Assembly: GCA_002917775.1 (NCBI GenBank)
Contig: KZ627150.1
Coordinates: forward strand, 188,052 to 252,051
DNA: 64,000 nt
Direction: 5' to 3'
Origin: Glaciozyma antarctica PI12
Lineage: Eukaryota; Basidiomycota; Microbotryomycetes; Kriegeriales; Camptobasidiaceae
The notes under the pieces are model-generated. The model worked only from the letters and a program-made list of their open reading frames with translations. It had not been told where the DNA came from and ran no database searches. Of this stretch, positions 1-63,152 are shown one piece after another. The first letter of the stretch is position 1, and every line of letters starts with the position of its first letter. Position numbers and translations under genes: made by a program.

Positions 1-438
1 CCTCCTCAAGCAACACACACTCGAGTCCAAACCCCCTTTCCCTCGCAGCGCTCCAGCTCATCCAAAGCTCCTCGACCAGGATCCAGCCGAGATTCATCGA
101 CTTGAGAGCTCCCAAGCTGCCAATGACCGCAGCGATACGCTCGTCGCAATTCGAGTATTTCGGTACGTCCCAGGCGGTCTCCCCAAGGTCGATGGTGACG
201 ATTCCAGGCGAGGATATCGCGAGAGCTTCGAGCTTTTCGAGCGTCATGTCGCGCGTGTAGCGAAGGGTAAGGTGGCGAAGCTTGGGGAAGGAGGTAAGGA
301 GGGAGAGGGGAATGGTGGGGCCGGTATGGTCGCCTTTGTACTCCCACGGAGCTTCGTCGATCGTGTCGAGGCCATCGAAAGAGAAAGATCTCAGCTGCTG
401 TCCGAGGGCGTGTACAAAGATGTCGAGATCGGTGGGGG
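1..438 (-). repeat. Left outer arm of inverted duplication (F-box 3' half)
   Basis: The reverse complement of 1-438 matches 19880-20293. The left copy is 24 bases longer: the right lacks 1 base and then 23 bases nearby. A cluster of about a dozen substitutions lies at roughly 111-170; the rest looks identical. The duplication continues beyond position 1, since the right copy runs on at 20294. Confidence 0.85.
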
Positions 439-1240
439 AGGGGAGGTCGCGAGCCGTCATGATGAAGATGTATAGGTTGAGAGTTCGCTTTGGGATGCAG
501 AGGAGGAGGTCGCCGAGGTCGAGGTCGCAATTGAGCAGGCTGAGCTTGCGAACGCGAATCGCGAGTCCGCCCTGCGTCGCCCTCGACGATTCGGTCGATC
601 TCTCCCACTGGAGCTGGAGATTGCTCAAGACGAAACGGTCGAGCTTGGTGATCCCCGCCGACTTGAACCAGCGGCAAAAAGCTTTCCTCGACAGTCCCCT
701 CGCGGTGATCGCAACCTCGCTGAGGCGACCAGGAACGACGACAAGCGCTTCGAACATCGCCTTGACCTGCTTCTCGGTAGCCATTGGCATCCCAACTCCC
801 TTCAGGCGCGGACAGCACTTGACAAGGTCGCGCGCCCATTCCCACGCGAGGTACCTTGCAGGCGGATTCGACTTCGTGCCGGGCTTCAGCTCAATCAGCA
901 GGTACCATGAAGAGGCCGATTTGAGAAGGCGTCGGTAGATGGTGGTGAGAGGCTGGAGGTATTTTACGAGGGAAGCGAGTTCGGGGTGAGTTTGGAGGGT
1001 CGAGAGGAGAATGGCCGCGCTCGCCCACGTCGTCGCGGGGGCGGCGTCCCGGCTGAAGGAAGGTGCAACCAACGGCGAGCGATAGAGCTCGCGAAGACCC
1101 GACGAGAGCCAACCTTTCGAGGTGCGAGCGAAGGCGCTGAGCGTAGGGAGGCGAGCACGCTTGTCGGGGAGGTTGCTGATGCGTCGGCAGATGAGGTCCT
1201 GGGCTTCCTCGCTGATTCGGAGAGCTGGTGGAAGGGGCAT
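1..1240 (-). CDS. F-box-like/LRR-like protein, 3' end cut by window start
   Basis: One uninterrupted frame runs from an ATG at 1240 to the window edge, about 413 codons without a stop. The N-terminus (LPPALRISEEAQDLICR, then a segment ending GLRELYRSPL) matches the N-terminus of the gene at 7806-9311 and looks like a degenerate F-box; the rest is leucine-rich with an F-box/LRR layout. The C-terminal part (RHLTLRYTRDMTLEKLEAL onward) is nearly the same as the gene after the N gap (19880-20391). A splice-like donor near 1307 and acceptor near 1258 lie upstream, so a 5' UTR or extra N-terminal exon is possible. F-box proteins usually act as SCF ubiquitin-ligase substrate adaptors; that role is inferred. 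The stop lies outside the window. Confidence 0.7.
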   Translation of the reverse strand, partial: MPLPPALRISEEAQDLICRRISNLPDKRARLPTLSAFARTSKGWLSSGLRELYRSPLVAPSFSRDAAPATTWASAAILLSTLQTHPELASLVKYLQPLTTIYRRLLKSASSWYLLIELKPGTKSNPPARYLAWEWARDLVKCCPRLKGVGMPMATEKQVKAMFEALVVVPGRLSEVAITARGLSRKAFCRWFKSAGITKLDRFVLSNLQLQWERSTESSRATQGGLAIRVRKLSLLNCDLDLGDLLLCIPKRTLNLYIFIMTARDLPSPTDLDIFVHALGQQLRSFSFDGLDTIDEAPWEYKGDHTGPTIPLSLLTSFPKLRHLTLRYTRDMTLEKLEALAISSPGIVTIDLGETAWDVPKYSNCDERIAAVIGSLGALKSMNLGWILVEELWMSWSAARERGFGLECVLLEE

Positions 1241-3109
1241 GGCGAGAGATGGGTAGCTAGGGCGGAGAGTCAGCGAGCGGCCTGAGCGGAAGGGCAGCAC
1301 AGGACGTACGGGAGGTGGAGTGAGCGCCGCAAGAGAAGACCGCTGTTCACGCTGGGAGTAGCTTCAAGCTCTGAGGAGGAGTGTTGGTTTCGGAGGAGCA
1401 AGCAAGACCTGAGCGAGTGGGGAGAGGGAGAGGAGCAACTCGCTCGAACTCGAGCCTCTTGCGCTTCTACCGTCGCCTGCGATCCTCCACTGCGAAGCTT
1501 TCCAGGTGTACACGCTGAGCCCCGATCAACAGTACGTGCCATCCAGACGCTCCTCAAAGCCTGCGCCAGCTGACCGCCCTCCTCGCTTCGCAGACGCCCG
1601 CCTAGGTCGGAGGCTTTCTTGAACGACACCGTAAGACAATCCCGGCGAGGCAGAAGGAGAGAAAGCTAACCAAGCTCTACAGTAGGCTCGCATCCGCCCT
1701 ACGACTTCTCCTGCTTGGCACCGTCGACCTGAGACCCCCTCCAACCGTCCACCTGCTCCTTATCGCCTGGCCGCCGATTCGCCCCGCAGAGCACGCGTGT
1801 CTTCGAGTGGCAGGAGAAGAAACTGGTGTGGAATGGAAGCCCTCAGTTCGAGCTGGAGCAGGAGACCGAAGAGGGAGGTGGAGCTGAGGTGCGACGACTG
1901 CTAGGCTCGAGGACGCGACGAGGTCAAGAGCCAGCGCTCTGGCTGTGCGGACCTGCTTCCTTTGAGAGAACGGGAGCTCGAGTGCAGGCACAGGAACCAG
2001 AGCAGGAGCTCGAGTCCCCGGACGTCCTCAGCTCCTCAAGGTGCACGAAATCGCCCCCTCGGAGGAGTGGAGCTTTCGCCCTGCGTTGTATCGCAGTCAA
2101 CGTTCATCTCACTGCTGCACTCGTGCGTTCTTTTCGCTGACGCCGTTTACCGGAGCTGATTCGTTCCCTGAGCAGTCTAGCATCCAGCGCGGCCGAAACG
2201 CCTACCGTTCGATCTCGCACTCGCCCAGGAACGACACGACCTCGCACGAAGCTAAAAGCTACTAGCTGTGCGCTCGAATAGGCCGGTTGCTGAGAATACT
2301 GCTGGTGCGAAGACGGAGCGTGGTGCCGAGCGCGGCGACGATCATTTTGAGCGCGATCTCTTGCTGGTGAGCCTTATCGTTCTCTTCCCGAGCAGCGAAT
2401 CCGTTCTGATGAGCGCACACAGGTTGCCAAGTTGCAACAACAGAGGACCTGACGTTCGCAGCGTCTCAAGTTTGCCATCGAGTCCGGGACGCCTGCGTGC
2501 GCTTTCAACACTCCCCTACCCAGCTTCTCGCTTCTCTCCCGAATCGCAGGAGAACATTCACGGCAGTCATGAGCACTTTGACGAGCTTGTCCGTAGCTTG
2601 GTGAGGCACGGTTTCGACACTGGAGGGGCAGCGACCAGCTTTTGAGGAACGAGATTGGAGGACTGCGCCGAGGGGAATCAGCTACGCAGAGGAATGCGAC
2701 GTTCTCCCTCTTCACCACTCTCGTGCACTTCTCTGCTCATCTCGAGAGCTCTCGCTGCTGAACGAACTTCTGCTCTGAGGTGTTCGTGATCTTGCGATCC
2801 TTTCTCGCTCTCGGTCTCGCACTGCTCCGCCCTTCGCAATCGCAACGTTGGCTTGGCTCCCGAGCATTCCTAGCTTCTGTTCCATCGCTCAGCGCTTTTC
2901 TCTGCGCGTTCTTCACAACCTGCTCCGCAGACACGCGCCGATTCAGGTGAGACCCATCGTCCGTCGCGCGAACGAACGACGAAACAGGAGCAAGGCTCTC
3001 GCCGGAGTTTGCGCGCGTTCTGGAGCAGGTCGTTGGCGAATCTCTCTCTCTCTCAACACGGTGTGGGATGGTGGAAAGCAGAGGAGGGATGGATTCGCAA
3101 ACAAATCGT
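1241..3109. other. Unassigned 1.9 kb, no recognisable gene
   Basis: No frame here resembles a known family and the open frames are short with arginine/serine-rich random composition. Several intron-like 3' ends (CTRAC followed within about 20 bases by CAG, for example near 1570-1592 and 1666-1680) lie on the plus strand, so a spliced non-coding or decayed transcript is possible. If the duplication was complete, the counterpart of this stretch should be inside the N gap. Confidence 0.5.
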
Positions 3110-4114
3110 CTAGTGCTTGTTGTCGTCCTTGTTCTCGTCTTCTGCGAACGGGACGTCAGTTCAAGGCTGCGAGAGACAAACAAGCGAAAGGAACGCACTC
3201 TTGCCCCAGTCCTTGTTGTCCTTGTGATCATCCTTGTGATCGTCGTCTGCAAAGCGAGAGTCAGGTCCACGAACAGCGAGGAGGAAAAGGAAGACGTACT
3301 CTTGCCCCAGTCCTTGTTGTCGTGCTTGTCGTCGTTGTGCTTCTCGTCTGCGACGCGAGAGTCAGTTTGGAACGAGGGAGAAGGGTCGAAAGGACGTACT
3401 CTTGTTGTCCCAGTCCTTGCCGTAGTAGTCCTTGCCGTAGTTCTCCTTTCCGTGGTAGTCCTTGCCGTAGTAGTCCTTGCCGGGGTAGTAGTCCTTGACG
3501 TCGTTCCAGTCGTTGCGGTAGTCCTTTCCGTGGTAGTCTAGAGAAGTGGCGTAAGCGAACGGCACCGAACGAACGAAAGTGGAAAAGACGCACCCTTGCC
3601 GTAGTAGTCCTTGCCGTAGTAGTCCTTTCCGTAGTAATCCTTGCGATCCCAGTCCTTGCGCTCGCAAGAGTCTGTACGAAAGAGCCGCACCGTCAGTCGA
3701 GGAGCGAGGAACTAAACGAAAATCGAACTCACACTTGTTCCAGTCGTACTTGTCCTTGCCGTAGTTCCAGTCCTTGTGGTCGTACTTGCCGTCGTCCTCT
3801 GCCAAACGAAGCGCCAAGTCAGCTACGTGCGAGAAGCGAGGGAGCGAAGACGAGAACGCACTCTTGTCCCAGACCTTGTTGTCGTACTTCTGGTCGTCCT
3901 TGTGATCGTACTTGTCCTTGTTGTCGTACTTGTGTTCGTCGTCTGTCGAACGGAGTGCGAGTTAGCTCAGGAAAAGACGAGAGAGAGAGAGAAAAAACCG
4001 CGTGCTCTTTCCGTCGTACTTGTGGTCGACCGCGCCGCCGTCGGTGGCGGTGGGGACAGCGAGCGCCGTCATGGACGCGAGAGCGAGGACCGAATAGAGA
4101 GTGGTGGCGAGCAT
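3110..4114 (-). CDS. Secreted Lys/Asp/Tyr repeat protein made of phase-1 exon modules
   Basis: Eight exons: 4114-4006, 3942-3862, 3798-3733, 3671-3594, 3537-3400, 3347-3300, 3246-3199, 3141-3110, giving 199 residues. Exon 1 holds the ATG and a signal peptide (MLATTLYSVLALASMTALA). All seven introns interrupt codons after the first base, so each internal exon (81, 66, 78, 138, 48, 48 nt) is a self-contained in-frame module. The mature protein is built of short units such as KYDNKDKYDHKD, DYYGKDYYGK and DNKDWGK; it is rich in Lys, Asp, Tyr and His, with a single Cys. Exons 6 and 7 are sister copies. Intron 1 has a GC donor; the others are GT. I recognise no domain; a secreted cell-wall, adhesive or metal-binding role is speculation. 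The perfect agreement of frame and splice signals through eight exons is the main support. Confidence 0.82.
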
Positions 4115-5361
4115 TGCTGAGGTTGGTTGCTGAGGAGGTTGGTTGCTGGGGTGGTTGCTGGGTTGCTTGATTGCGTGCGGAATCGAGAACCAAGGACCAC
4201 CGGACCTCAAGAGGGCGCTCAGCGGGAAGGCTTCCATCCAGCTGCGAGTCCTTCTAATTTGTGCGCGAGTACAGGAGTGTCCCTCATCACGGGGACGCGA
4301 GGATGCAGCGCGATCCGCTCAAGACCTGCCAAGTGGGGTGGCTCGCAGAATCGAACTCGTCCAGACCTCCGAGAAGAAGAGCAGGTTTCGCTGGAGTAAC
4401 GGTATCGGTGGAAGCTGGTGCGGAGCTGGTCAACGTCGCCGCTCGTCGAGGCTGAGATCTGAGAAGGAGCAAGCGACGGCGCCGAAACGCTCCACCGTTG
4501 ACCACCTGCGAGTGTTCCGCGAGGATCTAGAAAGCGCGAAAGCCCCGCTTCGGCCAAGCCCTGCAAGGGAGACCCTGAAAACAGAGCCGGAGGAACGGAA
4601 CCCTCGGCGACGCGCGGGTAGGGCCAGCAGCTCCGCTCCGCCACGGCGTCCGGGGCAAGGTGTCGAAGGGCTGGGACTGGAAGCCAGGGGAGCAGTATGC
4701 TGGCAGCAAAGCAGTGTGCGTAGATCAGCGTTAATGGAGAGAGGGAAAGGAGCAGCAACGTCGCCGCCGCGAACGAGCTGCTCGTCTCTTGCGCTGGTAT
4801 CGCCCCCGACCTTTCGGTACAACGCGTTCTGACTGCTCAGAGTAAGCCTAGGAGCAGTAGGACGAGCACACCAGCTCTCCCAAAGCCGCCGCCAGCTAAC
4901 GCGCCTTGCTCGCCGCAGAGGACCGCTTGCAACGGAGGCTGCTCCAGGGACGCCGTACGCACTCTCTAGCTCCATCGAGCAGCGTGGAGAGGACAGCTAA
5001 CCCACATTGCAGAGTGAACAGCAACTCTGCGCCGCCTGGGTGCCGCGAACCGTCGACCTCCGCTCCTCCGCCTCCATCCGCCGTCCCTCTCTCCGCCGCG
5101 CTCCTCTCGCCTGGCAGCTTACTCGCACCTCGTGATGCGCTATCTTCTGAGGACTAGGACGCGTTGATTCGTAGGCTGTGGAGGCTGAGCTGGAGCGGGC
5201 GTTCGGACGAGCGAGGCGTGGGCTGGACGACCTGAGCTGGAGGACGCCGCGAAGGCGACGGAGCAGCTGTACGTGCCCTCTTTCCTGCCGAGAAATTATT
5301 AGCTAACGAGCGGGAGCGGTTACAGAAGGAAGGAGCGCTCTCTCTCGGCGACGACGCTTCG
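4115..5361. other. Unassigned 1.25 kb upstream of the repeat-protein gene
   Basis: Contains the promoter and leader side of the minus-strand repeat-protein gene and then sequence with no recognisable gene. Intron-like acceptors occur on the plus strand near 4918 and 5010. Nothing else can be supported. Confidence 0.45.
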
Positions 5362-5922
5362 CACTGGCTCTCGCGAGTTGCGGAAACTACTGCTGGAGAG
5401 GGCTTCGCTCGAGGGGAGCTGCTTGGTCGCGACTCTGAGTGCCTGCTTGCGAGTCTTCTGCATCTTTCGGCCCCGTCGATGGGTTGAGGAGGACGCAGGA
5501 GGACGCAGGAGAGCTGAATCCTTCGCAGAGGGCGACCGTTTTCCCAGGGGAGATGCGCCGACGATGCTGAAGGAGCTAGCTTTTCGTTAATCGCGCGATT
5601 CTGGGTACCTGCGAGAGGGATGTGGGTGTAGCGACGAGTAATCCATCTTCGTCGACTGGGTGAGCGAGCTGCTTCTGCCTTCTGCTTCCAACGCTGCTCG
5701 CTGCTCGTTCAAAAGCTCCATCTACTTGAAAGCTGTCCTGTCGCTCGCTCTCGTTCCTGTTTTGAGTTCGCGAACGCCGAGCTGTTGCTGTCTTTCGACG
5801 ACAACGCAGCAAGCGACCAAAGCGCTGCTCCAGTCTCTCTCGGGGATCTCTCTCGCTGATCCATCCTACTTGAACAACACGACACGACAAGTTCATTCCG
5901 AAACGATCCCCCAAAAGTCCAT
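5362..5922 (-). repeat. Left inner arm of inverted duplication (SOD 3' flank)
   Basis: The reverse complement of these 561 bases matches 18459-19019 with no difference I could find and no length change. It includes a tandem GGACGCAGGA repeat near 5490. It corresponds to the 3' flank of the intact SOD gene at 17705-18446. Such identity in non-coding DNA next to diverged coding DNA points to recent duplication, gene conversion or an assembly effect. Confidence 0.9.
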
Positions 5923-5968
5923 CTTCTCTCCCCGTGACTAGCCCTCACTCTCCCCGAGCTCCCCCTCA

Positions 5969-6072
5969 CTACGTATCGCTCTCCCTCCTCAAGTTCGCGC
6001 ACGTAATCCTCGTCGAGTTCGCATAATGGATGACGATGCTGCGACTCCCAAAGTAGGCCTCCTCGTGAGGCT
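5969..6072 (-). pseudogene. SOD 3' fragment (last-exon remnant)
   Basis: On the minus strand the frame reads EAYFGSRSIVIHYANSTRI then TCAN and a stop at 5969-5971, nearly the same as the last exon of the intact SOD gene (18295-18446), with a few extra bases just before the stop. The preceding codons (KPHE) are only roughly similar, and the copper-binding core exons are absent upstream. It is a truncated copy at the inner edge of the left duplication arm and is unlikely to make an active enzyme. Confidence 0.8.
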
Positions 6073-7232
6073 TTGTCAAGGCGTAGTTTCTGTTCGCCAA
6101 ACGTTCCGAGCAAAGGAGGAGCGGGACGAGGAGGAGAGGCACGGAGGGCAAAAACGCAGGAAATAACTCTTCGATCGCTCATTCGCGCCGGGGCAGAAAT
6201 TGCAGTTCTTCGACAGTTTCTGCCCTCTCCTCCACCCTCTCCTCCACCCTCTACTCCCTCCCGCCACCTCGACTTCGAAGTCCAGAGCGACGCTGGAGCA
6301 ACACCTCGCCACTGTTGCAGGGCTCGTCCCCCGTCGGCGCGTGGGGGACGAGGAGGAAGGAGCAGCGTTGAGGAGGGACGTCGGCCAGCTAAAGCTCCGA
6401 GGTGCGCTGGGTTGGAGTGCGGGAGGCAGGCCGAGCTAACCCCAACGCAGGTCCCGTCTCGGTGGCCTGTCAACGGTGCTGCTCAACCCCAGCTCGCTCG
6501 CCCTTCCCGTCATCCGTAACCTCCGACCTCTCGCCCCCGGCTCCTCCTCTCCCTCGGCTCCCGATTCCATCGCCAGCGCCACGAGCACGGTCCTACTCCT
6601 CCGTTCACCGTGAGTCTATCCTCCTTCTTCTCCCCTCCCCACGGCCCCTCCCGCTCCAAAGGATGATACCTCCCAGTGCATGGCTTTCGTATCGAGGGCC
6701 TACGCTCTTTTAGGGCATGGCTCTCGACATGCCGATCGCAAAACTATAGACAAGCATATATCTGAACCCTCCTCGTTGCACGCTGGCTTTCGAGCGAGCC
6801 CGCTGCTTCAACCACGGCTGCTGTTCAGGACCACGAGCTAACGCCTTTCCTCTCGTGCAGTGCTCGTCGTAGCTGTTCCCCTCACCACTCTGCTTCTCCG
6901 TATTCAGTGACCTTTCGCTGCAAGCACCTCGTGCGCAATACTTACAGCGCATCCGGCCCAGTCTCAGACCAGGCCTCTTCTCACGAGCTGCCACCGCTTC
7001 GCTGCTAGGACACCGCTCGTCGCCTATTCTCCGCTTTCAACGCCCTCTCGCACAGGTCGACAAACCAGCTTGGAACGGCGGCCATTGCTCGCGCGCACCC
7101 GCACTACTGCGTGCCTCAGCAGCGGCGATCGTGGTGCGAAAGAGGAGTTCGCGCCGCACGGGGAGTTTTCGCAATACGAACGCACCATCGCTGGTGTCTG
7201 TTCATCTTCTCTCGCTTGGGGTCCTGCTACAG
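6073..7232. other. Unassigned 1.15 kb with a short pyrimidine tandem repeat
   Basis: No recognisable gene. A CTCCACCCTCTC-type repeat of about three units lies near 6225-6255. Intron-like 3' ends occur near 6450 and 6860 on the plus strand. The stretch separates two SOD fragments in opposite orientation. Confidence 0.45.
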
Positions 7233-7514
7233 AGGAGCATGGCAAGATCGCCTCGTCGCCGTTCGTGGCGTCGTACGTCGATTTGTTCGCTTCGACCGAC
7301 CCCGCTGCGGAGGAGTTTGTGGGAGGACGGAGTGTTGTGGTGCATTTTGCATATACAGTGGGGCGAGGTTTTCGTAGGTTCTTGTGCGCCAAATTTCGAC
7401 GTCGCCAAGGACGAGCTGGCGGGAGTGAACGTTGGAGGAGCGCGGAGGGGAGGAGTGGGAGGAGTGATGGCGTTTGTGCTGGGAGCGGTGGCTCTTCAGG
7501 TTCGTGTTTGGTGA
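7233..7514 (+). pseudogene. Second SOD C-terminal fragment with hydrophobic tail
   Basis: After an acceptor-like CTACAG, the frame reads VASYVDLFASTDP then GGRSVVVHF, matching the last exon of the intact SOD gene (TSYVDLYASTEP, SRSIVIHY). The expected continuation (SCAPNFDVAKDE, then a Gly-rich stretch and hydrophobic VMAFVLGAVAL end resembling a GPI-anchor signal) lies in a different frame, so a frame break sits near 7353-7375. No exon with the HIH copper-site motif is found upstream. It looks like a truncated paralogue of a GPI-anchored surface SOD. Confidence 0.65.
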
Positions 7515-7805
7515 TGGAGGGATGGTTCCGAGGTTGAAAGGACGTTGTGAAGTGACTGCGAAGCTTGCCAGAGAGAGGGAGCGAGATCTGCTCTTCGCCG
7601 CGAGACCCCCATTCTTTCTGCTTCCTGACTTCTCTCCTTCGCTCAGCTCACTCAGTCGCTTAAAATCTTCAAGCAGTGCTGACGGAGGAAGTCTCAAGCA
7701 GGAGAGCAGCGAGCCAGCGAGGAATGGCCGAGATGCGGCGTCTTCTCTCGGCGAGCTCGTCAAGTACCGTGCCGCCAACTCAACCTGGAATTGCGAACCA
7801 TTCAA

Positions 7806-9311
7806 CTAGTACTCGTAATCGTAATCCACCTCGTAATCCTCCTCGTAATCCTCCCCGTAATCCTCCTCGTAATCTTCCTCGTCGAACGAGTCAATATCCT
7901 CCTCCATGGCGCACACCTCGTACTCCAGCTCCACTCCCTTCGCCGACGCAGCCTGGTGGCTTTCCCTCAACTCCGAGTGCGCCTCAAGCGGGAGCCAGCC
8001 GAGATTCAGCTTCTTCAGCTAACCAAGGCTCAAAATAACGGCTGCGATGCGTGCGTCGGCGTCCACGCGAAGGACGCTTTTGTCAAAGTGCTCGATGCTC
8101 GCCGAGTCCCAGACGCTGTAGGCGAGATTGATGCTAATGAGGTGTGGGGAAGTACGGGCGAGAGTCTCGAGCTTCTCGAGAGACATGTCGCGGGTGTATT
8201 TGAGGAGGAGGTGACGGAGGCGGGGGAAGGAGATGAAGAAGGAGAGGGGGATAATGGGACCGGTGTGTTGCTCTTCGGTGTAGGATTCGTACGAGTCGAG
8301 AGAGGGAGGGTGGTCGATCCCGTCGTCTGGCAAGTACAGTCCCTCATCGATACTAAACGCGAAACGGCGAAGCTTCTGGCCGAGCGCTTTCGCGAGGAGC
8401 TCGAATTGGGAGGGAGAGAAGGGTGGGCCCTCGTGAGAATCGACGACAAGGGAGATGAGATTCGTGGGGTGGGCTGGGGTGCAGAGGAGGAGGTCGTAAA
8501 ACTCCATGTTGCACGAAAGGAAGGTGATGTAGCGAGCTTGGATAGGTGATCCTCCCCGAGTGCGCGGCGTCGACAAGTCCAGCCATTCTAGTTCGAGAAA
8601 GTGAAGGTGGTCGAGCTTCTTGATCCCGCAGCTTCGGATCCAGCAAAGGTAGGCGTCCTTCGGCATGTCGAATCCAATGTCGACCTGAGCCAAGCGCGTC
8701 GGGTCAACGGCCATGGCGTCCTTCAACTTCTCCGCCTCCTCAACGGACTGCAGCTGCACACCGACCCGCTTGAGACGCCTGCACCTCGTTAAGATCCCGC
8801 ACATGATCTCCAAGAACTTCTCCCGCCGAGCAGCGACGACCGCATCGTCCGTCGGAGCCGATATACCGAGGGCCCGACAGACTGCTGGGATCCTCTGCAG
8901 AGACTCGACGTGATTCGCAAGTTCCGGATGAGCGCGAAGTGTCGAGAGAAGAGCTTCGGCGCTTGCGATCATCCCGTCGGAACGCCATCTGAACCGGGAG
9001 GCATCCAAGGGCGAGTGGTAGAGCGCTCGAAGGCCCGACGAGAGCCAGTCCTTCGTGGTGCGAGCGAAGGCGTTCAGGGTGGCAGAATCGTATATGTAGC
9101 GGCAGATAAGGTCCTGAGCTTCTTCGCTGATTCGGAGGGCGGGTGGGAGGGACGTGGCGCCTGGGACGTTCGGCGGCAGGGAGAGGTTGGAGCTTTGGGA
9201 GTCGGTGGCAGCAGGGACCTGGCAGGACGGCGAGGATGTCAGGGGAAGCTTTACTAGATCAGAGCTACCACGTACCTCCTGGAGTGGCTTGGAGGCGTTG
9301 GCAGCAGACAT
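7806..9311 (-). CDS. F-box-like/LRR-like gene with internal in-frame TAG
   Basis: ATG at 9311. A probable 57-nt in-frame intron (GTACGT...CCTGCCAG) lies at about 9282-9226. The N-terminus ALRISEEAQDLICRYI and the body match the gene at 1-1240 throughout. The frame meets TAG at 8019-8021, within SLG*LKKLNLGW. It then stays open and homologous for 71 codons (the paralogue has SLGALKSMNLGW), ending in an acidic Tyr tail (EEDYEEDYGEDYEED) with a stop at 7806-7808. Either this is a nonsense allele or decaying gene, or a base error, or the stop is read through. Function as an SCF adaptor is inferred from family only. Confidence 0.75.
7809..7876 (-). repeat. 12-base tandem repeat coding an acidic Asp/Glu/Tyr tail
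   Basis: Units of CGTAATCCTCCT (plus strand) repeat about five times with small changes. Read on the minus strand they code EEDY/GEDY units at the C-terminus of the F-box-like gene, downstream of its internal TAG. The related right-arm gene also ends in an acidic Ser/Asp/Tyr tail. Confidence 0.8.
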
Positions 9312-17704: not shown

Positions 17705-18446
17705 ATGCTCGCTCAAACTCTTCCCTACGCAATCCTCGCTCTCGCCTCCTTCTCCACTCTCGCCAACGCCCACTCGACCCCTCCTCGCATCACCGGAAAG
17801 CTCGGCGACGCTCGCATCACCACCAACAACCCCAAGGGAGTGGTCTACACCGCCACCTTACCCGAACGCCACGATACGACAGTCCATGGATCCATCACCG
17901 CCGCCGCTGGTCCTGGAGGCAAGGGAGTCAAATTTGACGTCCACTTCTGGGGGCTGCCGGAGAAGGGAGGACCGTTTCGTGAGTGCTGCTTCTTCGTTCG
18001 CCCTCCACGCAGCTGAATATGTGGTTACAGCCTACCACATTCACGTCTACCCCGTCTCCGAATCCGGCGACTGCCTTGCGACGGGCGAGCACCTCGATCC
18101 CTTCGTCCGCGGCCAAGTCCCTCCTTGCGACCCCTCCGCTCCCGAGACCTGCGAGGTTGGTGAACTCTCAGGAAAGCACGGAAGCGCCATCCCATACTAC
18201 GGATACGACCGCAACGACGATCACTGGGATGGGAACAACGGTGCGTCGCCTCGCTCCTCAATCTCGGCCGTAAACTGACTTTCGGTCATCGCAGAGGACG
18301 GCAAGTACTCGACCTCCTACGTCGACCTCTACGCCTCGACGGAACCTCACGACGAGGCCTACTTTGGGAGTCGCAGCATCGTCATTCACTATGCGAACTC
18401 GACGAGGATTACGTGCGCGAACTGGAGGGAGAGCGATGCCTGGTGA
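17705..18446 (+). CDS. Secreted Cu/Zn-type superoxide dismutase
   Basis: Three exons: 17705-17978, 18031-18240, 18295-18446, giving 211 residues. A signal peptide (MLAQTLPYAILALASFSTLANA) precedes a SOD_Cu domain. The metal and structural residues can be seen: HIH of YHIHVYPV (copper), GDC (disulfide Cys), GEHLDPF (bridging His), GELSGKHG (His), IVIHY (copper His) and CAN near the end (second disulfide Cys). The ELSGKHG region and extra cysteines resemble extracellular SOD5-like fungal enzymes, some of which use copper only. No GPI signal follows, so the product is probably soluble and secreted, removing superoxide at the cell surface. Its 3' end and flank are copied in inverted orientation at 5362-6072. 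Confidence 0.88.
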
Positions 18447-18458
18447 GAGGGAGAGAGG

Positions 18459-19019
18459 ATGGACTTTTGGGGGATCGTTTCGGAATGAACTTGTCGTGTC
18501 GTGTTGTTCAAGTAGGATGGATCAGCGAGAGAGATCCCCGAGAGAGACTGGAGCAGCGCTTTGGTCGCTTGCTGCGTTGTCGTCGAAAGACAGCAACAGC
18601 TCGGCGTTCGCGAACTCAAAACAGGAACGAGAGCGAGCGACAGGACAGCTTTCAAGTAGATGGAGCTTTTGAACGAGCAGCGAGCAGCGTTGGAAGCAGA
18701 AGGCAGAAGCAGCTCGCTCACCCAGTCGACGAAGATGGATTACTCGTCGCTACACCCACATCCCTCTCGCAGGTACCCAGAATCGCGCGATTAACGAAAA
18801 GCTAGCTCCTTCAGCATCGTCGGCGCATCTCCCCTGGGAAAACGGTCGCCCTCTGCGAAGGATTCAGCTCTCCTGCGTCCTCCTGCGTCCTCCTCAACCC
18901 ATCGACGGGGCCGAAAGATGCAGAAGACTCGCAAGCAGGCACTCAGAGTCGCGACCAAGCAGCTCCCCTCGAGCGAAGCCCTCTCCAGCAGTAGTTTCCG
19001 CAACTCGCGAGAGCCAGTG
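18459..19019 (+). repeat. Right inner arm of inverted duplication
   Basis: Matches the reverse complement of 5362-5922 over all 561 bases with no difference seen. It starts just after the SOD stop codon and ends exactly at the N run, so the true end of the right copy is unknown. Confidence 0.9.
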
Positions 19020-19879
19020 NNNNNNNNNNNNNNNNNNNNNNNNNNNNNNNNNNNNNNNNNNNNNNNNNNNNNNNNNNNNNNNNNNNNNNNNNNNNNNNNN
19101 NNNNNNNNNNNNNNNNNNNNNNNNNNNNNNNNNNNNNNNNNNNNNNNNNNNNNNNNNNNNNNNNNNNNNNNNNNNNNNNNNNNNNNNNNNNNNNNNNNNN
19201 NNNNNNNNNNNNNNNNNNNNNNNNNNNNNNNNNNNNNNNNNNNNNNNNNNNNNNNNNNNNNNNNNNNNNNNNNNNNNNNNNNNNNNNNNNNNNNNNNNNN
19301 NNNNNNNNNNNNNNNNNNNNNNNNNNNNNNNNNNNNNNNNNNNNNNNNNNNNNNNNNNNNNNNNNNNNNNNNNNNNNNNNNNNNNNNNNNNNNNNNNNNN
19401 NNNNNNNNNNNNNNNNNNNNNNNNNNNNNNNNNNNNNNNNNNNNNNNNNNNNNNNNNNNNNNNNNNNNNNNNNNNNNNNNNNNNNNNNNNNNNNNNNNNN
19501 NNNNNNNNNNNNNNNNNNNNNNNNNNNNNNNNNNNNNNNNNNNNNNNNNNNNNNNNNNNNNNNNNNNNNNNNNNNNNNNNNNNNNNNNNNNNNNNNNNNN
19601 NNNNNNNNNNNNNNNNNNNNNNNNNNNNNNNNNNNNNNNNNNNNNNNNNNNNNNNNNNNNNNNNNNNNNNNNNNNNNNNNNNNNNNNNNNNNNNNNNNNN
19701 NNNNNNNNNNNNNNNNNNNNNNNNNNNNNNNNNNNNNNNNNNNNNNNNNNNNNNNNNNNNNNNNNNNNNNNNNNNNNNNNNNNNNNNNNNNNNNNNNNNN
19801 NNNNNNNNNNNNNNNNNNNNNNNNNNNNNNNNNNNNNNNNNNNNNNNNNNNNNNNNNNNNNNNNNNNNNNNNNNNNNNN
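19020..19879. other. Assembly gap (860 N)
   Basis: A run of 860 N. The flanks correspond to left positions 5362 and 438, so the left arm holds 4,923 bases where the right has 860 N. Either the gap size is only an estimate and a second repeat-protein gene is hidden, or the right copy is shorter. Open frames drawn across the N are meaningless. Confidence 0.98.
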
Positions 19880-20293
19880 CCCCCACCGATCTCGACATCT
19901 TTGTACACGCCCTCGGACAGCAGCTGAGATCTTTCCTTTCGATGGCCTCGACACGATCGACGAAGCTCCGTGGGAGTACAAAGGCGACCATACCGGCCCC
20001 ACCATTTACCAAGCTTCGCCACCTTACCCTTCGCTACACGCGCGACATGACGCTCGAAAAGCTCGAAGCTCTCGCGATATCCTCGCCTGGAATCGTCACC
20101 ATCGACCTTGGGGAGACCGCCTGGGACGTATCGGACTATTCGACGTGCGACAAGCGTGTTGCTACGGTTATCGACAGCTTGGGAGCTCTCAAGTCGATGA
20201 ATCTCGGCTGGATCCTGGTCGAGGAGCTTTGGATGAGCTGGAGCGCTGCGAGGGAAAGGGGGTTTGGACTCGAGTGTGTGTTGCTTGAGGAGG
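19880..20293 (+). repeat. Right outer arm of inverted duplication
   Basis: Reverse-complement match of 1-438, 24 bases shorter, with a divergent patch at about 20131-20180. Confidence 0.85.
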
Positions 20294-20391
20294 ACTCGGA
20301 GGACTATGAAGGACTTGCGGATTCGGATTCGGTCGGGGATTACGCTTCGGGGGAGTACTCGGAGGAGGAGTCGGAGTATTCGTTCACCTAG
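19880..20391 (+). CDS. F-box-like protein, 3' part only (5' end in gap)
   Basis: The frame begins in the N gap. Compared with the left copy it lacks one base near 19930 (left CTTTCTCTTTCG, right CTTTCCTTTCG) and then 23 bases near 20007. The two losses sum to 24, so the shared frame is lost for about 75 bases and then regained at PKLRHLTLRYTRD (here TKLRHLTLRYTRD). It continues through LGETAWDV and LGWILVEELWMSW to an acidic tail (EEDSEDYEGLADSDS...) and a TAG at 20389-20391. The altered stretch next to the gap could be real or an error at the edge of assembled sequence. Confidence 0.65.
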
Positions 20392-21093
20392 TGAGGGTTG
20401 CAATCGTGGATTCGTGCTTTGGAGACCGATTTAATTTCTTCAGTGCGGCAGTACTGGCGAGTTTTCTTCCCTCGGACCAGCAGGGCAGGGGAGCGAGAGG
20501 AGTGGAGCGAGAGAGGCGCGTCGAGCCTGCCGCTCCCCGACGCGAAGTACCTCCCTCGCCTTGCCCTCGTCGACCTGTGTTCTCATTCTCAACCTCAGCA
20601 GTACAGTAGTTAATCTACGCCAAACCTTATGTACCCAACCTCACGACGTCCGCTTTCAATCGTTGGAGAAGTGCATCCTCTCAGGCCAGCTCCACGCTCC
20701 TCCGCCGCACGTACAGCCGCCAATTCAGATCCACGACCTAGGAGAAGACACCAGCAAGTTTCAAAGTAGTCCCCTATATCATCGCTCGAGAAGGGGGGAC
20801 GATCGCGGTCGTCGTCCGAGAGTCAAGGCAGCTCAGCGTCGAGAGCTTGCGCAGAGGTTTCCCCGCGCCTGGCTCCTTCGGAAACCCTTGAGAAGTTTGC
20901 AAACAGCAAGAAAGGTGCTCGAGAGGCGAGGAGGTTGAGCCGACCGCTTCGCACGGCGTGGTGAGTGGCGACGAGCATTTCGGAAATGCAGTTTTCGCCT
21001 ACTCGGCTAGCGAAGTGCTCTTCCCATCCAGGTTTGCTCGTGCGAGTGCGCGTATCTACGCTTCCAGGTAGCAATGCAGAATATGTACAACAT
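20392..21093. other. Intergenic between converging F-box-like gene and Tul1/Dsc1 gene
   Basis: Presumed 3' UTRs of the two converging genes. No gene, tRNA or repeat recognised. Confidence 0.5.

Positions 21094-62133: not shown

Positions 62134-63152
<1,019 letters not shown>

What the first reader, a model, noticed from the sequence alone, without database searches (positions are those of the whole stretch)
3110..4114. Secreted repeat protein in which every intron is phase 1 and every exon is a repeat module
Seen directly: eight exons, all seven introns in phase 1, internal exons of 81, 66, 78, 138, 48 and 48 nt, each starting and ending at the same codon position, so any exon can be duplicated, skipped or swapped without breaking the frame. 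The coded units (KYDNKDKYDHKD, DYYGKDYYGK, DNKDWGK) differ between exons while exons 6 and 7 are sister copies. Behind a signal peptide, this makes a highly charged Tyr/Lys/Asp/His surface or matrix protein. Symmetric phase-1 exons are a known sign of exon shuffling in animals; a yeast gene built this way could make length variants by exon duplication or skipping. I know no described family with this pattern. Adhesion, wall cross-linking or metal binding are guesses.
Basis: partly seen in the sequence, partly recalled or inferred. Interest (0 to 1): 0.8.

Follow-up and report, generated by a model that had tools for sequence, protein, structure and literature searches.

The report
Secreted repeat protein from copied exons
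A gene, probably fungal, for a secreted, highly charged, tyrosine-rich repeat protein appears to have grown by copying whole exon-plus-intron blocks, which explains why every intron cuts the reading frame at the same place; the way of growing is known from other organisms, the protein is not.

Summary
On the minus strand, 4114 to 3110, eight exons give a 199-residue protein with a signal-peptide-like start, and all seven introns are phase 1.

The seven phases are not seven independent coincidences. The gene's introns resemble each other more than random sets of window introns do, and exon-intron-exon blocks align through their introns. The gene most likely grew by tandem duplication of phase-1 exon-intron units, plus 12-18-nt repeat growth inside exons. 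Exon skipping would keep the frame but is not shown. The product looks like a disordered Lys/Asp polyampholyte with many Tyr/Trp; a matrix, wall or adhesive role is inference.

New here: the gene lies in one arm of an inverted duplication whose other arm has an 860-N assembly gap, and its signal-peptide exon resembles that of a nearby Cu-only-SOD-like gene, a possible parent (suggestive only). No relative was found, but no eukaryotic genome collection could be searched. Uniform-phase exon arrays are known in aphid bicycle, schistosome micro-exon and Tetrahymena LRR genes.

The parts
4006..4114 (-). Exon 1: start codon, signal-peptide-like sequence (MLATTLYSVLALASMTALA by eye), start of repeats
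   Evidence: resembles SOD-like gene start
3943..4005 (-). Intron 1, phase 1, GC-AG (GCACGC)
   Evidence: not recovered by the gene finder
3862..3942 (-). Exon 2, 81 nt, KYD.K repeats
3799..3861 (-). Intron 2, phase 1; resembles introns 1, 3, 6, 7
3733..3798 (-). Exon 3, 66 nt
3672..3732 (-). Intron 3, phase 1
3594..3671 (-). Exon 4, 78 nt, three DYYGK units, the only Cys
3538..3593 (-). Intron 4, phase 1; no close match to the other six introns
3400..3537 (-). Exon 5, 138 nt, two further DYYGK units
3348..3399 (-). Intron 5, phase 1; closest to intron 6
3300..3347 (-). Exon 6, 48 nt, ends DNKDWGK; sister of exon 7
3247..3299 (-). Intron 6, phase 1
3199..3246 (-). Exon 7, 48 nt, ends DNKDWGK; sister of exon 6
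3142..3198 (-). Intron 7, phase 1
3110..3141 (-). Exon 8, 32 nt, last residues and stop
1..6086 (-). Arm A of an inverted duplication: 6086-5362 and 438-1 match arm B; the repeat gene lies in the 4.9 kb between
18329..20293 (+). Arm B of the inverted duplication, interrupted by 860 N at 19020-19879
17705..18446 (+). Secreted Cu-only-SOD-like gene, predicted three exons, two phase-1 introns; possible parent of the repeat gene's signal-peptide exon

Best explanation
The gene is a protein-coding gene that grew by tandem duplication of exon-plus-intron units. A phase-1 junction (codon AAG, one base, intron, AC GAC or AC GAG) was copied together with its intron, presumably by unequal crossing-over or replication slippage, so internal exons are symmetric and introns share phase 1 by descent. 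This is well supported for the units around introns 2, 5, 6 and 7, weaker for 1 and 3, and unsupported for intron 4. Inside exons, 12-18-nt repeats (KYD.K, DYYGK) grew on their own. The product is inferred to be a secreted disordered polyampholyte (Lys+Arg 23%, Asp+Glu 28%, evenly mixed; Tyr+Trp 18%) acting as a multivalent hydrated matrix, wall or adhesive protein, with Tyr/Trp as stickers or cross-link sites and Lys/Asp as soluble spacers. Units can be gained or lost in frame, so length could vary between strains. Shown: anatomy, frame, resemblance of introns. Inferred: recombination mechanism, secretion, disorder, function.
For: Anatomy and phases; 6 of 7 introns found ab initio. Blocks align through introns: 3448-3218 with 3342-3113 (71.6%, 243 columns), 3909-3769 with 3243-3112 (72.7%, 143), 3904-3770 with 3339-3218 (72.6%, 135). 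Introns alone: mean pair score 11.8 against 3.9 (SD 2.1) for 20,000 random sets of 7 from 100 length-matched window introns, P 0.0001; 6 of 21 pairs in the top 2% of background. Tandem arrays of 12, 15 and 18 nt in exons. Composition, GRAVY -2.57, charges mixed more evenly than in any of 500 shuffles. Third-position G+C 0.91 against 0.74 in other predicted genes.
Against: No transcript, no protein and no relative seen. Intron 1 has a GC donor and was not recovered by the finder. Intron 4 is in none of the six closest pairs. Background introns are my own predictions. Six of 8 other genes with five or more short introns also show intron likeness above simple shuffling (z 2.7 or more), because splice signals are shared, so only the test against real introns counts. 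The function rests on composition alone.
Confidence: 0.55

Rival explanations
1. The gene descends from the neighbouring secreted Cu-only-SOD-like gene: a tandem copy kept the signal-peptide exon and the phase-1 intron-2 junction, lost the enzyme domain, and amplified that junction into modules. Compatible with the best explanation; it would add the origin.
For: The SOD-like start (-30 to +60) is the best match to this gene's start among the 1,042 other ATGs scanned (26, next 16) and its intron-2 junction is the most similar of 116 window junctions (18.5, next 11.6). 0 of 10,000 simulated signal-peptide starts reach 26; 1 of 10,000 reaches the coding part alone. SOD intron 2 against intron 5 of this gene beats all 114 background introns. 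SOD exon-3 relics lie at 6085-5975 and 7241-7399.
Against: The 30-nt leader alone is no better than the best of 18 other leaders (4.0 and 4.0). Random synonymous recoding of the SOD peptide reaches the observed DNA score in 4.8% of trials, so much of the match is at the peptide level. On the intron alone the SOD junction ranks 6th of 116; only introns 5 and 7 of the seven are in the top 2% against SOD intron 2. The SOD loop peptide matches the repeats no better than its shuffles (42 against a mean of 41). Only one other secreted gene start was available for comparison.
Confidence: 0.3
2. One reading: the symmetric exons serve regulated exon skipping that makes protein length variants.
For: Skipping any one internal exon keeps the frame, 6 of 6. 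Micro-exon genes of schistosomes are said to code for variant secreted proteins (PMC5038963, passages).
Against: Symmetry is expected from unit duplication alone. Exon skipping is 1% of coding-region events in S. commune by its main count (PMC5034255, passages). No reads were available.
Confidence: 0.1
3. Introns were inserted independently, or as copies of one mobile intron (introner), at the recurring AAG-GAC codon pairs of an intron-less repeat.
For: All junctions follow an AAG codon, and intron 4 is unlike the others.
Against: The resemblance does not reach beyond the gene: mean score of the gene's introns against other window introns 4.1, among themselves 11.8. Exon parts on both sides align together with the introns.
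Confidence: 0.08
4. A decaying or non-coding repeat array: the GC donor of intron 1 is a mutation that has disabled the gene.
For: GC donor; GTACGA at 4019 competes with it and breaks the frame.
Against: No in-frame stop in 600 nt, strongly biased third positions and intact splice sites at the six other introns.
Confidence: 0.07
5. A host-directed effector of the SP7 type: a secreted disordered repeat protein acting inside another organism.
For: Signal-peptide-like start and hydrophilic imperfect repeats, as in SP7-like effectors (PMC11333574, passages).
Against: The SP7 motif Y[KR]Rx[AP]x[AP] needs a KR or RR, and the protein has none; the organism and its lifestyle are unknown.
Confidence: 0.07

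Closest known systems
Tetrahymena LRR genes with arrays of 90-bp exons (PMC6564038, abstract and passages)
   Same: Tandem arrays of symmetric exons with one intron phase; the authors infer clonal origin and exon expansion
   Different: There phase 2, exactly 90 bp, LRR domains, thousands of genes; here phase 1, 48-138 nt, no known domain, one gene seen
Aphid bicycle genes (PMC9168663, passages)
   Same: Many small internal exons almost all of one phase; putative secreted effectors
   Different: There phase 2 and CYC motifs, about 17 exons on average; here phase 1, one Cys, eight exons
Schistosome micro-exon genes (PMC5038963, passages)
   Same: Symmetric short exons, secreted products
   Different: There most exons are under 37 nt; here internal exons are 48-138 nt and are repeats of each other
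SP7-like effectors of arbuscular mycorrhizal fungi (PMC11333574, passages)
   Same: Signal peptide, hydrophilic imperfect repeats, disorder
   Different: SP7 motif and dibasic residues absent here; in the passages seen, SP7 genes share one intron before the first repeat rather than an intron per repeat
Fungal Cu-only SODs (PMC13017621, passages; PDB 4n3t)
   Same: The nearby gene 17705-18446 is of this kind and its signal-peptide exon resembles that of the repeat gene
   Different: The repeat protein has no SOD domain (Pfam 0)

Membership tests
Genes grown by tandem duplication of exon-intron units | Internal exons symmetric and of one phase | tested here: met
   6 of 6 internal exons, 7 of 7 introns phase 1; intron 1 depends on a GC donor
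Genes grown by tandem duplication of exon-intron units | Introns between copies are related to each other | tested here: met
   Mean 11.8 against 3.9, P 0.0001; intron 4 not individually
Genes grown by tandem duplication of exon-intron units | Unit number differs between relatives or strains | not testable with these tools
   Own genome not held; no eukaryotic collection
Aphid bicycle genes | Internal exons almost all phase 2 | tested here: not met
   All phase 1
Aphid bicycle genes | CYC motifs | tested here: not met
   One Cys in the protein
Schistosome micro-exon genes | Majority of exons under 37 nt | tested here: not met
   1 of 8 exons (the last, 32 nt)
SP7-like effectors | Y[KR]Rx[AP]x[AP] motif | tested here: not met
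   No KR or RR in the protein
Tetrahymena 90-bp-exon LRR genes | 90-bp exons, phase-2 introns | tested here: not met
   Sizes and phases differ
Kex2-processed repeat proteins (definition recalled) | Repeats separated by KR or RR | tested here: not met
   0 such sites
Hydrophilins (definition recalled: Gly above 6%, mean hydrophilicity above 1) | Composition thresholds | tested here: met
   Gly 8.9%, GRAVY -2.57; a composition class, not a family
Hydrophilins (definition recalled: Gly above 6%, mean hydrophilicity above 1) | Protection against water loss | not testable with these tools
   Needs an experiment
Fungal Cu-only SOD | SOD domain | tested here: not met
   Pfam 0 families, PDB 0

The most novel reading that the evidence does not exclude
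A new secreted protein was born beside a Cu-only SOD gene: a tandem copy kept only the secretion signal and one phase-1 exon-intron-exon junction, and repeated copying of that junction, intron included, turned an enzyme loop into a disordered Lys/Asp/Tyr matrix protein whose length can change in frame by unit gain and loss.
Probability: 0.22. Interest if true: 0.6.

Novelty: new variant of a known kind. Interest (0 to 1): 0.42.

Why it matters
It gives a compact case, in a gene with 52-63-nt introns, where the shared phase of all introns can be traced to copying of exon-intron units rather than to shuffling of foreign exons. If relatives carry different unit numbers, it would be a natural length-variation system for a secreted disordered protein. 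If the SOD link holds, it would show how a new secreted protein can arise from one junction of an enzyme gene.

Tried and rejected
Other strand as coding: the plus-strand ORFs over the gene are hydrophobic antisense readings of the repeats, and third-position G+C supports the minus frame. Other donors for intron 1: none acceptable keeps the frame. First version of the gene finder: it merged the window into two giant genes and was discarded. Rfam: 0 matches at gathering score. Relatives: Pfam 0 and PDB 0; viral contigs 1 and bacterial/archaeal contigs 12 stretches matched a pattern, 0 confirmed. Repeat peptides in paper texts: 0 papers for six strings. Papers with all of Rhodotorula, secreted, repeat, phase 1, introns, exon: 0. 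One search returned mainly unrelated papers; one of them (PMC5034255) was used. One search gave one paper (PMC5412055), seen only in the listing and not used. Structure prediction was not run.

SOD loop peptide against the repeats: no better than shuffles, so not used as support. Intron likeness by shuffling was replaced by the comparison with real introns, because 6 of 8 other genes also exceed shuffles.

Full report
WHAT IS THERE. On the minus strand between 4114 and 3110 lies an eight-exon gene for a 199-residue protein. Exons are 109, 81, 66, 78, 138, 48, 48 and 32 nt, introns 63, 63, 61, 56, 52, 53 and 57 nt, and all seven introns interrupt a codon after its first base (one search had cut exon 4 short). 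The internal exon sizes are those in the finding. Of the introns 2-7, five donors read GTRCGT and one GTGAGT; five of these six introns contain CTGAC, intron 4 has CTTAC instead, and all end in AG (sequences). Intron 1 is the exception: it starts with GCACGC. Read as if it were GT, this donor scores 4.9, against a median of 5.4 for the predicted donors, and no acceptable in-frame GT donor was found.

INDEPENDENT CHECK. I wrote a small gene finder (codon scores, splice-site matrices, short introns) trained only on the window. A first version over-merged and was discarded. The second predicted 20 genes and recovered introns 2-7 of this gene exactly, all phase 1, but replaced the GC intron by two other introns and used an upstream start. 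In a later run 22 genes passed the threshold before overlap removal, and this gene had the longest same-phase run (6; next 5 and 5); the reversed window gave 0 genes, a weak control because reversal also removes splice signals. There is no transcript evidence, and the background gene models are rough.

IS SEVEN OF SEVEN SURPRISING? The other predicted introns are 54, 53 and 41 of 148 in phases 0, 1 and 2, so seven independent phase-1 introns would have p about 8e-4. They are not independent. Alignments run through introns: 3448-3218 with 3342-3113 (end of exon 5, intron 5, exon 6, intron 6, exon 7, one unit out of step; 71.6% over 243 columns), 3909-3769 with 3243-3112 (exon 2, intron 2, exon 3 with exon 7, intron 7, exon 8; 72.7% over 143) and 3904-3770 with 3339-3218 (exon 2, intron 2, exon 3 with exon 6, intron 6, exon 7; 72.6% over 135). 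The exonic parts are low in complexity and inflate such scores, so introns were tested alone: the mean pair score of the seven is 11.8, against 3.9 (SD 2.1) in 20,000 random sets of 7 from 100 length-matched window introns, P 0.0001. Introns 5 and 6 are the closest pair; 6 of 21 pairs are in the top 2% of background pairs, and intron 4 is in none of them. Tests by shuffling are weaker evidence: 6 of 8 other genes with five or more short introns also give z of 2.7 or more. So the uniform phase is most simply inherited from copied exon-intron units. Inside exons, arrays with periods of 12, 15 and 18 nt show a second, finer growth, so 'every exon is a module' is only roughly true.

THE PROTEIN. 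After a signal-peptide-like start (judged by eye; no signal-peptide program was at hand) the 180-residue remainder is 25% Asp, 22% Lys, 13% Tyr, 9% Gly, 9% Asn, 6% His and 4% Trp, with one Cys, no KR or RR and no N-glycosylation sequon; GRAVY is -2.57, and charges are mixed more evenly than in any of 500 shuffles. Third-position G+C is 0.91 against 0.74 in the other predicted genes, which fits strong expression or repeat homogenisation. Pfam, PDB, viral and bacterial/archaeal contigs gave no relative; no eukaryotic genome collection was available, so this means little. A hydrated matrix, wall or adhesive role is my inference from composition.

SPLICING. Skipping any one of exons 2-7 keeps the frame, 6 of 6; of seven single intron retentions only that of intron 2 reaches the normal stop in frame. 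In S. commune exon skipping is 1% of coding-region events and intron retention 43-44%, though a second junction-based count in the paper lists 1,527 coding-region exon-skipping events (PMC5034255, passages). KYD codons (AAGTACGAC) contain GTACGA, close to the local donor consensus, so out-of-frame cryptic splicing is conceivable.

SURROUNDINGS. In inverted orientation, 6086-5362 matches 18329-19019 (93.7%, long stretches identical) and 438-1 matches 19880-20293 (91.6%). Where arm A has 4.9 kb with the repeat gene, arm B has 860 N, 19020-19879. Either the gap hides a second copy or something shorter, or the assembly of the arms is faulty. The boundary at 6086/18329 lies in exon 3 of a Cu-only-SOD-like gene with a signal-peptide-like start (17705-18446; best PDB match C. 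albicans SOD5, E 2.3e-19; Pfam Sod_Cu 26.6 bits, under its cut-off of 28.9). This leaves a relic of its 3' part at 6085-5975; another, more diverged, lies at 7241-7399. If the gap holds what arm A holds, the repeat gene sits about 1.9 kb downstream of the complete SOD-like gene in the same orientation (inference).

POSSIBLE ORIGIN. For: the SOD-like start (-30 to +60) is the best match to this gene's start among the 1,042 other ATGs scanned (26, next 16), and its phase-1 intron-2 junction is the most similar of 116 junctions (18.5, next 11.6); 0 of 10,000 simulated signal-peptide starts reach 26. Against: the 30-nt leader alone ties with the best of 18 other leaders, and random recoding of the SOD peptide reaches the observed DNA score in 4.8% of trials; on the intron alone the junction ranks 6th; only introns 5 and 7 of the seven are in the top 2% against SOD intron 2; and the SOD loop peptide matches the repeats no better than shuffles. 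I give this origin 0.3.

KNOWN PARALLELS. Uniform-phase arrays of short exons are described in Tetrahymena LRR genes (PMC6564038, abstract and passages), aphid bicycle genes (PMC9168663, passages) and, as mainly symmetric very small exons, schistosome micro-exon genes (PMC5038963, passages). SP7-like fungal effectors are secreted disordered repeat proteins (PMC11333574, passages). This gene fails a defining feature of each (membership table). It resembles the first group in how it seems to have grown; it is a member of none. Text searches for the repeat peptides and for a Rhodotorula case found no paper in the held library.

VERDICT. Observation confirmed, with the GC donor as caveat. The mechanism is known in kind; I found no description of this instance, and the protein is unknown. 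The species was not identified.

Noticed in passing
1-6086 and 18329-20293: Inverted near-identical duplication; arm B is interrupted by an 860-N assembly gap (19020-19879) exactly where arm A carries 4.9 kb with the repeat gene. A second gene copy may be hidden, or the assembly is faulty.
   Followed up: partly
17705-18446; 6085-5975; 7241-7399: Cu-only-SOD-like gene with signal-peptide-like start (best PDB match C. albicans SOD5), and two relics of its last exon nearer the repeat gene.
   Followed up: partly
6-1240; 7806-9311; 19880-20393: Paralogous genes without a Pfam match at E 0.1 (the two tested: 6-1240 and 7806-9311); they look F-box/LRR-like to me (recalled). The copies at 7806-9311 and 20393 end in acidic Tyr-rich tails.
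   Followed up: partly
3862-4114: KYD codons (AAGTACGAC) contain GTACGA, a near match to the local GTRCGT donor, so exons carry cryptic out-of-frame donors.
   Followed up: partly
62475-63152: Predicted ubiquitin-ribosomal S27a fusion gene, recognised by eye from the translation; not searched.
   Followed up: no
4238-7805: The gene finder called no gene here above threshold, apart from the SOD relics seen by tblastn.
   Followed up: no
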